Of a stretch of DNA of 64,000 nucleotides, positions 13,211-18,240 are shown piece after piece. Position 1 is the first letter of the stretch. The number at the start of each line of letters is the position of its first letter. The position numbers were made by a program, and so were the translations under genes. A model generated the notes under the pieces. That model did no database searches. It had not been told where the DNA came from and was given only the letters and a program-made list of their open reading frames with translations. This DNA comes from Oscillatoriales cyanobacterium (lineage in GTDB: Bacteria > Cyanobacteriota > Cyanobacteriia > Cyanobacteriales > Microcoleaceae). The stretch covers positions 62,001 to 126,000 of the forward strand of contig RDYN01000041.1 of the NCBI GenBank assembly GCA_004293365.1, read 5' to 3'.

Positions 13211-13788
13211 ACTAATAGTCCTCTCTTTGGTGTCGTTTGCCCGATCGGGAATAGCATCCTTTTCCAACTGTCTTCAGCACTCGCCGACAGCACTGCTTCT
13301 CTCGCACTGCGTCTAGAAAGCACTGCCGCCGCCTGCTTTCTGAACCAATGGGAGAGCAGTATCAATGCCGCTTGATTCAAGACTAGCAAAACTGGGGGGA
13401 CTGCCATAGCCCAAAGCCGAAAAAGATCAGTCAGTCAAAAACTTTCATTGATTGTATCAGGCTTTCGGTGAGGGTCGATCGCCATCTCGTCCTTTAATTG
13501 CCCAAACCGCGTCTTCTCCGCAGGCGGACTAGGGATTTGAACCGCACTGCCTTAGAATAGTGGAATCACGCGAGCCTGTCATCGAGATCTACTCTTGAGC
13601 AAAAAGGTCAATGCTTTAAGACAGAACCCAACCGCAAGGACGCACAGCGCAAGGTAAACGTCAAAATTTTGGCGGTCGAAGACTTGAACCAGTCGTCCCT
13701 GCCAGCGTTGGACGACGATCGAAAAGCCCAGACAATTGTGTGTGTCATAAACCCCACGCACCAATGCCGGGGTGATGACTGTTAACAA
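13211..13788. other. Spacer between hmpF and the TnpB element
   Basis: 578 bases. Possibly the original hmpF-hmpA intergenic region. A minus-strand frame at 13579-13788 could encode 69 residues ending in a hydrophobic stretch, but I find no binding site or family. GGCGGACTAGGGATTTGAACCGC near 13524 resembles the 3' half of a tRNA on the minus strand, but no D or anticodon arm fits. Confidence 0.4.
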
Positions 13789-15450
13789 TTTACCTAGATT
13801 TACCCAGGATTTAGTAGTTAGATTCTCGGTAAGCCAATGGATAGATTGATGAGTATTGGCGAGTTAGCAGAGCTTTAAAGCTGTTAACATACGAAGAGAT
13901 AAACACATTGAGAGGTCGAATCAATGGCTACCCTAACTTATTGCAAAGGCTTGCCCACACCAGTACACGAACTCAACGAACTAGGATTTACAGATTTCGA
14001 GATGTTCTTAGAAGCTTACGCCCCAATTTTTAGGGCTGCAAGCATTGAAACAGTTGACCACTTACTTTTAGGCACAGAGTTCAAGAAATCAGATTGGAAC
14101 ACGCATTTACAGCAAACCTACGGCATCAATAAGCGCCACGCCAATGGTGTAATCAGTTCTGCCAAGGGTCGTGTAGATGGTGCTAAAGAACACAGGATTT
14201 TACATCTAAAAGCTCTTGAAGGAAAAATTAAATCTATTGGTGCGTGGCTCAAGAAAGCCGAACGCAAGTTGGTATTAGCTCGTAAGTTCTATGCCAAGAA
14301 AAAATGGCAGAAATCAAAAACAGGTTGCAATTTTCCCCTAGCCTGCTCACTTCAATATAAATCCACAAACTGGCAGAATTTGCGCTTTCAAATTCACAAC
14401 AAAAAGCGTAAACTGACTGGGTTAATTAACAGAGTAGAACATTTAAGGCTTTCGCCAGTCAAAGTCTTCATCCCGATGAGGGATATTTTTGTTGTCGGCT
14501 CTAAGGATGAGTCTTTTGGCAATCAAGTCTGCCAGTGGAATGGGGATAAAATAACTTTTAGAGTCCCCAAATGCTTAGAGTCACGATTTGGAAAAACTGT
14601 GTCCTCTCTTGTTGGTGATTTCAGCCGCAACATCAACAGACTGCCAGAATGCGGTGCTAAAACCTGGCATTTCTATCGCAAGAATGGAAAGTGGGTTACT
14701 GCCGTGCAGTTTACCCCAAATCCCGCGAAGCAGGTTTCGAGAGAGAGAATGTACGGTTGCATTGGTATCGACATAAATCCCGGTTCTATTGGGTGGGTGT
14801 ATGTCGATTCTGAAGGGAATCTCAAAGCCAAAGGGCAGATCCCATTGCAGATAGGTTTACCCTCCGGCAAGCAACAGGCTCAAATTGTTGATGCTTGTCT
14901 GCAACTAGCTGCAAAAGCCACAGAATTTGAATGTCCTGTGGTTTGTGAAGAACTTGATTTCTCAACAAAAAAGCAATCGCTGGGAGAGAAAGGTAGAAAG
15001 TATGCTCGAATGTTGTCGGGTTGGGCGTATAGTGAGTTTTATAAACAACTCAGTTCTATTTTGTCGAATCGTGGGATTGAGTTGACAACGGTCAATCCAG
15101 CTTATTCAAGCATTATCAGCTTGGTGAAATACCTGAGAATGTATGGCTTAGCTAGTGACGAAGCGGCTGCACTGGTAATTGCTCGTAGGGCAAGCAAGTT
15201 AAGTGAAAAAATACCTTGCTCCTTAACCGCCTATTCTGAAGTGAATTCAGAAAAGCACGTTTGGAGCGAGTGGAACAAACTGAATAAAAAAATCAAACGT
15301 TCCGCTATGATATCACGTCGTTGTGATTATCAAGCGTGTTTCTAACGGTCGTTTCTTGGTCAACCTCGATACTGAGGAAGCGTAAAGCGCTAAGAAAGAA
15401 TGTTTCAAACTTATACCGCAGAGTTTACCTAGGTTTGCCTAGGTTTTTAT
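13789..15450 (+). mobile_element. IS200/IS605-like element with TnpB only
   Basis: The boundaries are inferred from two similar ends in direct orientation: TTTACCTAGATTTACCCAGG at 13789-13808 and TTTACCTAGGTTTGCCTAGG at 15424-15443. The right end forms a perfect six-pair hairpin CCTAGG-TTTG-CCTAGG, the left an imperfect one. Subterminal hairpins without inverted repeats are characteristic of IS200/IS605 elements, which move as single strands through TnpA. No tnpA is present, so this copy would depend on a TnpA elsewhere. The element separates hmpF from hmpA. Confidence 0.6.
13924..15345 (+). CDS. TnpB-related RuvC-like nuclease
   Basis: 473 residues from ATG 13924. The C-terminal half is a split RuvC domain with all three acids: CIGIDINPGSIGWVYVD (Asp283), VVCEELDFSTKK (Glu342/343) and YGLASDEAAALVIARRA (Asp412). 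The expected C4 zinc ribbon between the second and third motifs is absent; instead the segment reads NPAYSSIISLVKYLRM. This is the pattern of the TnpB-related proteins found with IS200/IS605 elements, which by analogy with TnpB may be guided by an RNA from the element's right end. The N-terminal half is basic and helical. The frame is intact, so the protein may be active. The 3' region 15346-15450 would be the place for a guide RNA scaffold. Origin by transfer is implied by its insertion in the hmp locus. Confidence 0.8.
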   Translation: MATLTYCKGLPTPVHELNELGFTDFEMFLEAYAPIFRAASIETVDHLLLGTEFKKSDWNTHLQQTYGINKRHANGVISSAKGRVDGAKEHRILHLKALEGKIKSIGAWLKKAERKLVLARKFYAKKKWQKSKTGCNFPLACSLQYKSTNWQNLRFQIHNKKRKLTGLINRVEHLRLSPVKVFIPMRDIFVVGSKDESFGNQVCQWNGDKITFRVPKCLESRFGKTVSSLVGDFSRNINRLPECGAKTWHFYRKNGKWVTAVQFTPNPAKQVSRERMYGCIGIDINPGSIGWVYVDSEGNLKAKGQIPLQIGLPSGKQQAQIVDACLQLAAKATEFECPVVCEELDFSTKKQSLGEKGRKYARMLSGWAYSEFYKQLSSILSNRGIELTTVNPAYSSIISLVKYLRMYGLASDEAAALVIARRASKLSEKIPCSLTAYSEVNSEKHVWSEWNKLNKKIKRSAMISRRCDYQACF

Positions 15451-15697
15451 AAGCGGCTTGTAAGACTTAATTCTAGACAGGCTGATGCCTGAAATTGCTG
15501 CCCGAAGCTCAAAATCCCCAGGCCTCCATAGCTGGGGAGTATGTCAACAAGAGAAAATCGCCCTTTCGTCAATTCCTAATTGTGCCAGTGGCATCGAACC
15601 CGTAAATTCTTGACAGAAACTAAAGTTAATATAAGCGCGATCGCACAGTCTTTCTAATTTCAGACGCCAACGGTTTTAAGGAGGATACTTTAGCTGC

Positions 15698-16933
15698 ATG
15701 CAGGGAAATTTGAGTGAAATTGACATCCGCAGCATCCTGCAATTAATTGAGTTAGGTCAGCGCACCGGAGAACTGTTCGTAGAGGCCTACAGCTTCACCG
15801 GCAGCTCGGGTAATCTACCTACCCAGCGCTCCGGTGCAGGACAATCCTGGTATGTCTTCTGCTTCAACGGTCAGGTTATTTACGCTACCCAGAGTGCGGG
15901 CAGTTTGTTTCGCTTGCGCGACTACCTGCGCCGCTACAAAGCAGACACTGCCCTCGACAAAATCCAACTTCCCTATATGGCATCTACCAATGCCCCAGAA
16001 TACGGCTACCTGTGGGCGCTGCTAGAAAACCACATCCTCACCCCAGCTCAAGGGCGCAACATCATCCACAGCATGATCCACGAAACCCTGTTTGACTTGC
16101 TCAGCCTCCACCAGGGTTCCTTCACTTTTGAAATGGGCTCAGCATTGGCTCCTCAACTCACCAGCTTAGAAATTAGCTCGCTGCTGGCGAAGATTGTCCA
16201 ACAGGTGCAGCAGTGGAAGCAGTTTCACCCTCACATTCAGTCGCCCAACCAATGCCCGATGATTTCAGATCCCGCCGAGCTCCGAGTCGCCCTGCCTGCC
16301 AATACCTTTAATACTCTCAGACGCTGGGCCGACGGTCACACTTCGATCCGCCAAATGGCGCGCTACCTCAACCGAGACGTGCTGACTGTCGCTAAGGCAA
16401 TTTACCCCTTCGTGCAGCAGGGATTGGTGCAAGTATTTTATGAGCCCTCTGTTGCCCCGGCCAACAATAGGGGGGGGTGGTCGTCTCCAGAAACCAAGGT
16501 CAAGAGAGTTGTCTGTATAGACGATGACAATGTGATTCGCAAAACAGTTGAGTCAATTTTAAACGAACAAGGTTACGAAGCTACTGGCATCAGCAGTCCC
16601 CTCGAAGCCCTGAGTTTGGTTTTTAAACTCAAACCCGATTTAATTTTGTGCGACATCGCCATGCCCGAACTCGACGGTTACGAAATTTGCGCGATGCTGC
16701 GAAATTCTAGCGCTTTCCGGCACACGCCGATCGTCATGCTGACAGGGATCGACGGATTTATCGATCGCGTTAAAGCCCGCATGGCGGGGGCGACTGACTA
16801 CTTCACCAAACCTTTTGGCGAAAGCGAGTTATTAATGCTGGTAGAAAAATATGTAGGGCCGGGCTATCCTGAGGCCAATCTCTCGGAAAAATTATTAGGG
16901 TCTAAGCTAGAAGACGAATTAGAAGCAAAATAA
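15698..16933 (+). CDS. hmpA: PatA-type response regulator HmpA (PATAN + REC)
   Basis: 411 residues. The N-terminal 240 residues form a PATAN (DUF4388) domain starting MQGNLSEIDIRSILQLIELGQRTGELFVE, with helical part LRRWADGHTSIRQMARYLNRDV. The C-terminal receiver domain (about 265-390) has the acidic pair in VVCIDDDNVIRK, phosphoacceptor Asp319 in LILCDIAMPELDG, Thr in VMLTGIDG and Lys in YFTKPFG. The organisation is that of PatA, PilG and HmpA. AAGGAGG lies 13 bases before the ATG, somewhat far. It heads the chemotaxis-like series and would be phosphorylated by HmpE to direct type IV pilus activity. The symbol follows Nostoc; Synechocystis calls the equivalent pilG. Confidence 0.87.
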   Translation: MQGNLSEIDIRSILQLIELGQRTGELFVEAYSFTGSSGNLPTQRSGAGQSWYVFCFNGQVIYATQSAGSLFRLRDYLRRYKADTALDKIQLPYMASTNAPEYGYLWALLENHILTPAQGRNIIHSMIHETLFDLLSLHQGSFTFEMGSALAPQLTSLEISSLLAKIVQQVQQWKQFHPHIQSPNQCPMISDPAELRVALPANTFNTLRRWADGHTSIRQMARYLNRDVLTVAKAIYPFVQQGLVQVFYEPSVAPANNRGGWSSPETKVKRVVCIDDDNVIRKTVESILNEQGYEATGISSPLEALSLVFKLKPDLILCDIAMPELDGYEICAMLRNSSAFRHTPIVMLTGIDGFIDRVKARMAGATDYFTKPFGESELLMLVEKYVGPGYPEANLSEKLLGSKLEDELEAK

Positions 16934-17559
16934 ATTCCGCACCGGTGGCATGATTCCAGCTTTTTTGTAGCCGAGGATGCCAGCGCAGTCTCGACATTCA
17001 GAGACAGAAAGCTCTTTGCTGCGGGCGATCGCACCATCAACTAGAATGTATAAATTCGCGCGCCCGCCGTCCGGCGTCTGTCAAACTCAGTGCAATTTCT
17101 CGATCGCGAAGGGGCCGAAGTCGCTCAAAGTGCAAATATAATATACTTGTTCTCCACTTGCAGCCGATCGCCAAAACAGATGGGCACAGCAACGACTCCT
17201 TGAAGCTCAAATTTCAAACAGACTGAACTATCTGGACATACAAGACATCTTCTGTTAAATTTCCCCGGTAAAGCAAACACTGGCTTTATGGCTAAACCGA
17301 AATCGGCTCAGGACTCAAATTCACAAGAAAAGACCTTCCAACCAAACTGGAATCCGTTTTGTCAAAAGAAGTCGGGTTGGTTGTCATTGCCCGCAAAGCT
17401 GGTTGGTGCAGGTTGGGATTCAATCTTATCTCATGTCCGAACCCGCCCGCAAAAACTGAGATATTGCTTCTCAAATCGGGCGACTTTAGCCCACAATGAG
17501 AAATCGTTGAAGATGTCCTCGCCATCATCCACATCTTTAGTTGCAGCCTGGGTGTCAGA
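16934..17559. other. Spacer between hmpA and the TnpB remnant
   Basis: 626 bases where the CheY-like hmpB gene would be expected. I translated both strands by eye and found no receiver motif (acidic pair, DxxMPxMDG, KPF). An open frame from 17288 has no recognisable N-terminal domain. Confidence 0.5.
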
Positions 17560-18240
17560 CTCAGAAAATACCAACAGCAAGTATGCCAAGACCGTTAGTT
17601 ACCAAGTTTACCCGTGCCATAAATTAGGGGTAATCCGGAAAAAGTGGGTGAGCGCTGTTCGCAAAGTTTACAACATTTCAATTGCTTACCTAGACGAACA
17701 TCAAGGTTTTAGCAGAATCAGCAATAGTGGAGAAAAGCCAGGCTTAAAAATGGTGCTAAAAACATCAGGTTTAATTCCTAAATGGTGCATCCCTAGAACG
17801 CTGGCAGCATTCAAAACCAGGATTCATGATTTAGGTTGGGAATGTGACAAACAAATTGCTTCTGCTTTTGCCACAACTTACGATTTTATATTTTTTCCGA
17901 CATTTGAGATGTATAAAAGAGTAATTCAAAAAAATCGCATTTTAAGGAGTAAAACGGCGACATCAATGATGAATTTGGCTGGCAAAAATCCAGGAAAACC
18001 TTACAAAACTTGTGTTGCCTTGACGGTTCCAAGTTAGTTGGGAGCAAAGACGAACCCACCTCTAAAACATTCGTGCCGTGGGAAAAATTATACTTAAAAT
18101 TGGGTGGTTGCCCAAATTGTAAGTTTCCTGACTGTGGGTATGAAATTTCTAGAGATTCCCCGGTTGTAAAGATTTTGGGGAAAGCTTTGTGGGATAAAAT
18201 ATCGATCGCTAATGTCCGAGCTCCCTCGTGTTGTACTTAG
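17560..18240 (+). pseudogene. Decayed TnpB (IS1341/IS891 type) fragment
   Basis: Fragments of a second, different TnpB can be read in order. First comes an N-terminal part KKWVSAVRKVYNISIAYLDEH...SGLIPKWCIPR, then RILRSKTATSMMNLAG, and in another frame SKDEPTSKTF...CPNCKFPDCGYEISRD, which is the zinc ribbon with two of the expected cysteine pairs plus the last RuvC motif. The RuvC I and II regions are missing and a frameshift lies near 18010-18037. So this is a dead transposon remnant with internal deletions, placed exactly between hmpA and hmpC. A longer frame starting at 17288 includes unrelated sequence. Confidence 0.72.

What the first reader, a model, noticed from the sequence alone, without database searches (positions are those of the whole stretch)
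13789..15450. TnpB-only element with hairpin ends in direct orientation and no zinc ribbon
The element's ends share TTTACCTAG(A/G)TTT(A/G)CC in direct orientation; the right end is a perfect CCTAGG hairpin with a TTTG loop. The protein keeps Asp283, Glu342/343 and Asp412 of RuvC but lacks the usual C4 zinc ribbon. If it works like TnpB, its guide RNA should come from 15346-15450 and use sequence just beyond the right end as the guide.
Basis: partly seen in the sequence, partly recalled or inferred. Interest (0 to 1): 0.62.

Follow-up and report, generated by a model that had tools for sequence, protein, structure and literature searches.

The report
IS607 relic with zinc-less TnpB
A cyanobacterial jumping gene of the IS607 kind that has lost its own transposase but kept a TnpB-type protein, probably an RNA-guided DNA cutter, without the usual zinc ribbon, together with the end that should make its guide RNA.

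Summary
The observed features are real: direct repeats, CCTAGG/TTTG hairpin, D283/E342/D412, no zinc ribbon. The boundaries and the family needed correcting. Relatives show an IS607-type (serine-recombinase) element, not an IS200/IS605 one: 12 of 40 unique loci keep a near-full IS607 TnpA upstream of tnpB; this copy keeps a 13-codon tnpA stub. Of 13 insertion sites compared with relatives, 8 have junction-spanning uninterrupted counterparts and 7 of those fit exchange at GG without duplication. By analogy the window's element is 13772-15456, after GGG (13769-13771), and the guide starts at 15457. The right end predicts a guide-RNA scaffold (about 15352-15456) with covarying helices and a pseudoknot (CCGC with GCGG) whose last GG is the transposase's crossover dinucleotide. 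Right flanks differ between insertions (34 distinct 20-mers in 35 copies). RNA-guided cutting is well supported by sequence but not shown. In this copy a frameshift replaces the last 17 residues by 4. Transposase-less forms with one and the same internal deletion sit at different sites, so another element's TnpA probably moved them. Copies were found through tnpB, so loss of tnpB would go unseen. Verdict: a new variant of a known kind.

The parts
13769..13771 (+). GGG at the left junction: target-derived, predicted TAM; its last GG is the crossover dinucleotide
   Evidence: GGG in 28 of 28 copies whose left end was recognised by an inner motif that does not ask for GGG (picked and read by eye; 17 of the 40 unique loci gave no recognised left end); uninterrupted sites of relatives
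13772..13812 (+). Left end; nt 1-7 (13772-13778) variable between copies, then CTGTT...TTTACCTAGATTTACC conserved
13837..13878 (+). Stub of IS607 tnpA (MDRLMSIGELAEL, stop); about 540 nt deleted
   Evidence: sequence against intact TnpA of L003 and L020; element 1686 nt against 2230 in L020
13924..15345 (+). tnpB, 473 aa, no zinc ribbon; D283, E342, D412; a +1 frameshift relative to L002 replaces the last 17 residues by 4
15352..15456 (+). Predicted reRNA scaffold: P1 15352-15359/15390-15397, P2 15364-15377, P3 15380-15388, H4 15407-15412/15421-15426, terminal hairpin 15427-15444, pseudoknot 15416-15419/15453-15456
   Evidence: structure from L002 carried over by hand to window coordinates; pair counts
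15445..15456 (+). Right terminus TTTTATAAGC + GG (GG 15455-15456 is the crossover dinucleotide)
   Evidence: same kind of terminus found by pattern in 35 of 40 unique loci; uninterrupted sites of relatives
15457..15476 (+). Predicted guide, CTTGTAAGACTTAATTCTAG; host-derived flank
   Evidence: differs between insertions; GG plus its first 18 nt occurs once exactly in the host genome, at this locus

Best explanation
A non-autonomous IS607-family insertion. Shown by sequence: tnpA is reduced to a 13-codon stub; both ends and tnpB remain; relatives insert by exchange at a GG dinucleotide without duplication. Inferred: the tnpB transcript is processed to a right-end RNA whose 3' pseudoknot (CCGC with GCGG) borders a guide copied from the right flank; the zinc-less TnpB uses it to cut DNA carrying GGG plus the guide sequence, that is, the emptied donor site or the uninterrupted allele, so that repair copies the element back. 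TnpA supplied by a related element moves it. In this copy the guide RNA looks intact but the protein's C-terminus is altered, so its activity is uncertain.
For: IS607 TnpA match of 190 aa or more upstream of tnpB in 12 of 40 unique loci, the window counted, and an annotated IS607 transposase next to a distant relative on a Pseudomonas plasmid. Junction-spanning uninterrupted sites for 8 of 13 insertions, 7 of them fitting GG exchange. Covarying helices. 34 distinct right flanks in 35 copies. The L119 guide matches 17 places in held loci exactly, 16 after GGG (loci fetched with that site's own flanks, one place held twice). dN/dS 0.08-0.37 in the 14 of 15 pairs that gave a value. Fold like TnpB and Cas12f. 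The same tnpA deletion joint at different sites.
Against: No RNA or activity data. The window's own uninterrupted site is not available in clean form. The frameshift removes conserved residues. Family models match weakly: PF07282 E 0.035 and NF040570 44 bits against a cut-off of 100. The host's two full IS607 TnpAs are only 36-39% identical to this family's, so no matching helper is seen there. Folding energy of the L002 scaffold is unremarkable (z -1.5). One covariation measure, further pair types, does not exceed its shuffles (475 of 500 and 488 of 500 reach it), nor does the number of doubly changed pairs in H4 (181 of 500). At the L120 and L129 sites relatives have extra DNA between two GGG instead of a simple uninterrupted site. 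The relatives of the L128 site have GAG or GAC, not GGG, before the guide sequence. All copies were found through tnpB, so their keeping tnpB while losing tnpA is biased by the search.
Confidence: 0.8

Rival explanations
1. A decayed relic: both the transposase and the nuclease are dead in this copy, and the conserved parts are leftovers.
For: Single copy, tnpA deleted, frameshift at the ORF end, no close TnpA in the host; window versus L002 dN/dS 0.37, the highest of the 14 values.
Against: The first 469 of 486 codons are open, catalytic triad and scaffold look intact; L002, at the same site in a sister genome, has the full ORF. dS between window and L002 is only 0.029, so the ratio rests on few changes.
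Confidence: 0.4
2. An IS200/IS605-type (Y1) TnpB-only element with hairpin ends, as the wording of the finding suggests.
For: TIGR01766 ('IS200/IS605 family accessory protein TnpB-related') just above its cut-off; hairpin at the right end.
Against: Relatives with an upstream transposase gene carry IS607-type TnpA; GG exchange at both ends; the stub matches the start of IS607 TnpA. No search with a Y1 model was run.
Confidence: 0.05
3. The protein is no longer a nuclease but an RNA-guided repressor or a regulator of transposition, as in nuclease-dead TnpB derivatives.
For: Unusual architecture, no zinc ribbon; two more distant relatives (L203, L204) lack the RuvC-III Asp at the matching motif.
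Against: D283 and E342 invariant and D412 in at least 90% of 29 aligned proteins, with low dN/dS.
Confidence: 0.12

Closest known systems
IS607-family elements such as ISXfa1 (PMC10711439: abstract, passages, two sections seen) and IS607/IS1535 (PMC6188088: passages seen)
   Same: Serine-recombinase TnpA in the family, GG exchange without duplication, (G)GG targets, short direct repeats at the ends; ISXfa1 TnpB: GGG TAM, right-end RNA reaching beyond the element, a required pseudoknot, and the fixed flanking nucleotide as part of the scaffold
   Different: tnpA deleted here; TnpB of relatives about 490 aa and without zinc ribbon; scaffold of another sequence (not compared base by base)
IS607 TnpB with RAGATH-18-derived RNA (ISFba1, PMC11061315: abstract, outline, passages seen)
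   Same: IS607 link, right-end guide RNA with pseudoknots
   Different: Those TnpBs average 390 aa; no Rfam family matches here at E up to 5 (that a RAGATH-18 model is among them is recalled)
Pro-Fanzors (mostly cyanobacterial IS607 TnpBs, PMC10711439)
   Same: Cyanobacterial, IS607 partner
   Different: They have DPG and a shifted Glu next to a zinc finger; here D-I-N-P-G, canonical Glu, no zinc finger
ISDra2 TnpB and Cas12f
   Same: Predicted fold: VIA-align Z 14.2, rmsd 6.5 over 285 residues (8exa) and Z 16.1, rmsd 6.3 over 311 (9i8y)
   Different: 14% identity in both alignments; no C4 pattern here

Membership tests
IS607 family | Serine-recombinase TnpA encoded by the element | tested here: not met
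   Only a 13-codon stub in this copy, no TnpA match in it; near-full TnpA in 12 of 40 unique loci. So: a derivative of an IS607 element, not a complete one
IS607 family | Exchange at GG, no target duplication | tested here: met
   In relatives: 7 of 8 junction-spanning uninterrupted sites, out of 13 sites tried; the eighth (L120) has 15 extra nt. Not readable for the window's own site
IS607 family | No terminal inverted repeats | tested here: inconclusive
   None pairing the two ends among the 25 longest of 42 inverted pairs shown
IS607 family | Short directly repeated motifs at the ends | tested here: met
   TTTACCTAG motif at both ends in direct orientation; feature described in PMC6188088
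IS200/IS605 family | Y1 (HUH) TnpA in the element or its relatives | tested here: inconclusive
   Inside this element no ORF other than tnpB exceeds 65 aa; upstream TnpA of relatives is IS607-type where found; no Y1 model search was run
TnpB RNA-guided nucleases | RuvC D-E-D triad and TnpB/Cas12-like fold | tested here: met
   (model mean pLDDT 77.7, pTM 0.55)
TnpB RNA-guided nucleases | Zinc ribbon between RuvC-II and RuvC-III (usual, not universal) | tested here: not met
   0 of 29 of this family
TnpB RNA-guided nucleases | Right-end guide RNA and guided DNA cleavage | not testable with these tools
   Scaffold predicted with covariation; no expression or cleavage data
Pro-Fanzor clade | DPG motif, alternative Glu six residues before a zinc finger | tested here: not met
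   D-I-N-P-G, canonical Glu, no zinc finger
RAGATH-18 reRNA | Match to its covariance model | tested here: inconclusive
   No Rfam match at E up to 5 in 13500-15800; presence of that model in the library not checked
Nuclease-dead TnpB-like repressors (TldR) | Loss of catalytic residues | tested here: not met
   Triad kept

The most novel reading that the evidence does not exclude
The transposase's GG crossover is built into the guide RNA (3' strand of the pseudoknot) and into the TAM (GGG). In an excised circle the right end would be joined to the left end at GG, and RNA read across that joint would take the left end as guide and point at GGG-left-end, which stands at the left junction of integrated copies. 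Left-end nt 3-6, the seed of such a guide, are nearly saturated with differences between close copies (0.64 against 0.07 for nt 8-38 in 8 copies; 0.48 against 0.13 in 6 others). A zinc-less TnpB family would then police its own relatives, with left-end variation as the self/non-self tag that lets transposase-less copies coexist.
Probability: 0.08. Interest if true: 0.75.

Novelty: new variant of a known kind. Interest (0 to 1): 0.42.

Why it matters
It shows a TnpB lineage of IS607 elements that does without the zinc ribbon yet keeps the catalytic triad and a covarying guide-RNA scaffold, so it can help tell which parts of TnpB are dispensable. The transposase's crossover dinucleotide appears to form part of the RNA pseudoknot, a tight coupling of the two enzymes that can be tested. 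Several different tnpA deletions with tnpB and both ends kept fit the idea that TnpB holds an element in place, with the caveat that the copies were found through tnpB.

Tried and rejected
Cas12k link: 12 cyanobacterial Cas12k proteins were compared with this family and with ordinary TnpBs; profile alignment gave no relation either way (probability 0.7% and 2.6%), so the idea was dropped as inconclusive. PDB sequence search with the single protein found nothing at E up to 10; with the profile only one weak match, to splicing factor SPF27 (E 0.021), taken as chance. Rfam gave no match. The right-end pattern with up to 3 mismatches has one exact match in the host, this copy; 96 matches in all against 175 for the reversed control, so the loose ones are chance. 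Automatic consensus folding of 32 right ends (of 35; near-identical ones left out) gave almost no structure because hairpin lengths differ between subgroups, so subgroups were used. Folding energy alone is unremarkable. Left-end 7-mers as copies of earlier right flanks: rejected by eye, as they tend to share TT and a final A/G that right flanks lack. For a described zinc-less IS607 TnpB I saw only the listings and the papers named above; none of these reports one. Most subscription papers are not held, and a broad TnpB/Cas12 classification (PNAS 2023, recalled, not seen) may contain this clade.

Rows dropped: 48 loci with a match of 380 aa or more became 40 after removing identical ones. The 29-protein alignment leaves out 11 of these 40: L005, L006, L018, L030, L031, L033, L099, L118, L120, L129, L131 (broken, cut, odd or distant ORFs). 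Right ends: 35 of 40; in 2 of these 35 (L006, L018) the H4 motif was not found and they are not in the H4 count. A1 uses 16 chosen right ends of the window's subgroup; its H4 columns are misaligned for the L119-like ones. Left-end diversity: 6 of 9 listed copies in the window's subgroup passed the pattern, 8 of 8 in the other. One of 15 dN/dS pairs gave no value (window-L011, dS saturated). The list was cut.

Full report
What is there. The window lies in a 7.3-Mb cyanobacterial genome (G000:C129); the genus corresponds to Microcoleus by equal contig lengths (for example G399:C338 and a 7458-base contig of Microcoleus sp. LEGE 07076), which is an inference. The ORF 13924-15345 encodes 473 aa, has one copy in the genome, and matches TnpB models weakly: NF040570 44.4 bits against a cut-off of 100, TIGR01766 33.1 against 32, PF07282 E 0.035. 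The host has 87 matches to the general TnpB model, so ordinary TnpB elements abound.

Relatives. A genome-contig scan, which reaches close relatives only, gave 36 loci, all cyanobacterial by title. A match at E up to 1e-10 was found in 9 of 386 genomes drawn from the phylum and 15 of 29 of the genus, the host counted. On plasmids 51 records matched, 34 of them Thermus and 5 covering 80% of the query; among phages 5 records. The Pseudomonas relative has an annotated IS607 transposase directly upstream; the Thermaerobacter one has none within 2.5 kb in an incomplete annotation.

Boundaries and family. A terminus of the form TTT(T/C)...A(G/A)CGG was found by pattern in 35 of 40 unique loci, after which sequence varies. 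In the 28 copies (23 of the 40 loci and 5 others) whose left end I recognised by an inner motif that does not ask for GGG, GGG stands 7 nt before it in all 28 (by eye; window and L002 share one insertion). Thirteen joined flank pairs were searched in 29 genus genomes (two of the sites come from a genome of another genus, and the list was cut). Eight had junction-spanning matches, and these were aligned. The uninterrupted site reads ..G-GG-flank, the left junction ..G-GG-left end, the right junction ..AAGC-GG-flank. Seven of eight fit GG exchange with nothing lost or gained: L011, L020 and L119 exactly; L021, L128 and L136 with one substitution at or beside the core in the relative; L135 up to the length of a G run. 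The eighth, L120, has about 15 nt more between two GGG in the relative. A ninth site, L129, has about 562 nt more in G389, again between GGG and GGG, and by coordinates in G405; in some other genomes its two halves lie on different contigs, so the original order is not certain. Four sites (L003, L010, L022, L118) gave no junction-spanning match in the rows listed. This is the IS607 mode of insertion as passages of PMC6188088 describe it (GG exchange, (G)GG preferred, no duplication, short direct repeats at the ends). The window's own uninterrupted site could not be read: its flanks are a decayed ordinary TnpB element, and the one comparable genome (G395) lacks 45 nt of left and about 80 nt of right flank as well.

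Transposase. 12 of 40 unique loci have an IS607 TnpA match of 190 aa or more upstream of tnpB, some of them in broken frames. The window keeps MDRLMSIGELAEL-stop (13837-13878), the start of that TnpA, then a deletion of about 540 nt. Nearly the same joint occurs in a G395 copy (L123) at another site, and other joints are shared between different sites: L119/L135/L186, L128/L136, L010/L011, L022/L118. Moving after tnpA was lost is the simplest reading. The host's two full IS607 TnpAs are only 36-39% identical to this family's, so no matching helper is seen there now. As all copies were found through tnpB, copies that lost tnpB would be missed.

Protein. In 29 aligned proteins D283 and E342 are invariant and D412 at least 90%. 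Profile alignment with 24 ordinary TnpBs of the host (probability 90%) places these on the canonical residues and shows the zinc-ribbon stretch shortened and without its cysteines. 0 of 29 have the C4 pattern, against 17 of 24. The AlphaFold2 model (mean pLDDT 77.7, pTM 0.55; 348-365, 429-450 and 456-473 poor) matches Cas12f, TnpB and RuvC: Foldseek best 8j3r, E 2.8e-10; ISFba1 TnpB 8iaz, E 1.9e-5; VIA-align Z 16.1 for 9i8y, 14.2 for ISDra2 TnpB 8exa, and for the RuvC part alone Z 14.2, rmsd 2.6 over 126 residues (4ep5). dN/dS was 0.08-0.37 in the 14 of 15 pairs with a value. Against the sister copy L002 the window has one base more near the end; the frame changes and the 17 residues YSVSNWSFLVNLDTEEA become QACF.

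Guide RNA. For 16 right ends of the window's subgroup, a structure with P1, P2, P3, H4, terminal hairpin and pseudoknot pairs in 91.9% of cells with 7 pairs changed on both sides; no shuffle of 500 reaches either value, and slid versions reach at most 62.4% paired. The structure was taken from L002, which favours it over slid versions, and the number of further pair types is not above the shuffles (475 of 500 reach it). H4 across 33 right ends (29 distinct): 84.5% paired, covariation score and paired cells above all 500 shuffles, one pair switching between GC (16) and CG (8), but the number of doubly changed pairs is reached by 181 of 500 and further types by 488. With one nt of slack, 31 of 33 form 5 or 6 of 6 pairs. 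The pseudoknot CCGC/GCGG hardly varies (mainly C-G to U-G), so covariation neither supports nor opposes it; a pseudoknot is needed by ISXfa1 TnpB (PMC10711439, section read). There the nucleotide flanking the right end belongs to the scaffold (section read) and the TAM is GGG (figure legend), which fits GG as the end of this scaffold.

Guides. Right flanks gave 34 distinct 20-mers in 35 copies; window and L002 share one site. Allowing 3 mismatches, the L119 guide is found at 20 places in held loci, 17 exact, 16 of these after GGG; these loci were fetched with that site's flanks and one place is held twice. L135: 8 places, all after GGG, none exact. L011: 3 places, one exact, after GGG. L128: 2 exact places, after GAG and GAC. 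GG plus the first 18 nt of the window's guide occurs once exactly in the host, at home, and once with 3 mismatches.

Left-end variation. In 8 close copies, nt 3-6 of the left end differ in 64% of pairs on average, nt 8-38 in 7%; in 6 copies of the window's subgroup 48% and 13%. Synonymous divergence in the first group is itself high (dS 0.25-0.96 in four pairs computed), so lack of constraint is a sufficient explanation; the circle-guide idea is the bold one.

Judgement. The element is a transposase-less IS607 derivative with a zinc-less TnpB and a plausible, covarying guide-RNA end. No step of guided cutting has been shown here.

Noticed in passing
window 17296-17550 and 18010-18240: A decayed second IS607 TnpA fragment (49 bits, below cut-off, one stop) followed by remains that read like a zinc-ribbon TnpB (CPNCKFPDCGYEISRD; by eye).
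   Followed up: partly
window about 13613-13768 and 15474-15550: Remains of an ordinary TnpB element into which the reported element was inserted; the right piece is shared with TnpB loci on C49, C100 and C185.
   Followed up: partly
L185 187-748 and the L120 site: At two of 13 insertion sites relatives have DNA between two GGG (about 562 and 15 nt) that is missing next to the element, as if the right end had recombined with a nearby GGG, which would also give the element a new guide.
   Followed up: partly
window 13772-13778 and relatives' left ends: The first nucleotides of the left end (3-6) are far more variable than the rest of the end.
   Followed up: partly
L186 (G407:C374): A related element (65%) with a damaged right end sits near the same spot upstream of the response-regulator gene as the window's element.
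   Followed up: no
window about 15344-15352, L129, L135: Near the end of tnpB the window, L129 and L135 share TAACGGTCGTTT where most relatives read TAACTGGAGTTT; unexplained.
   Followed up: no
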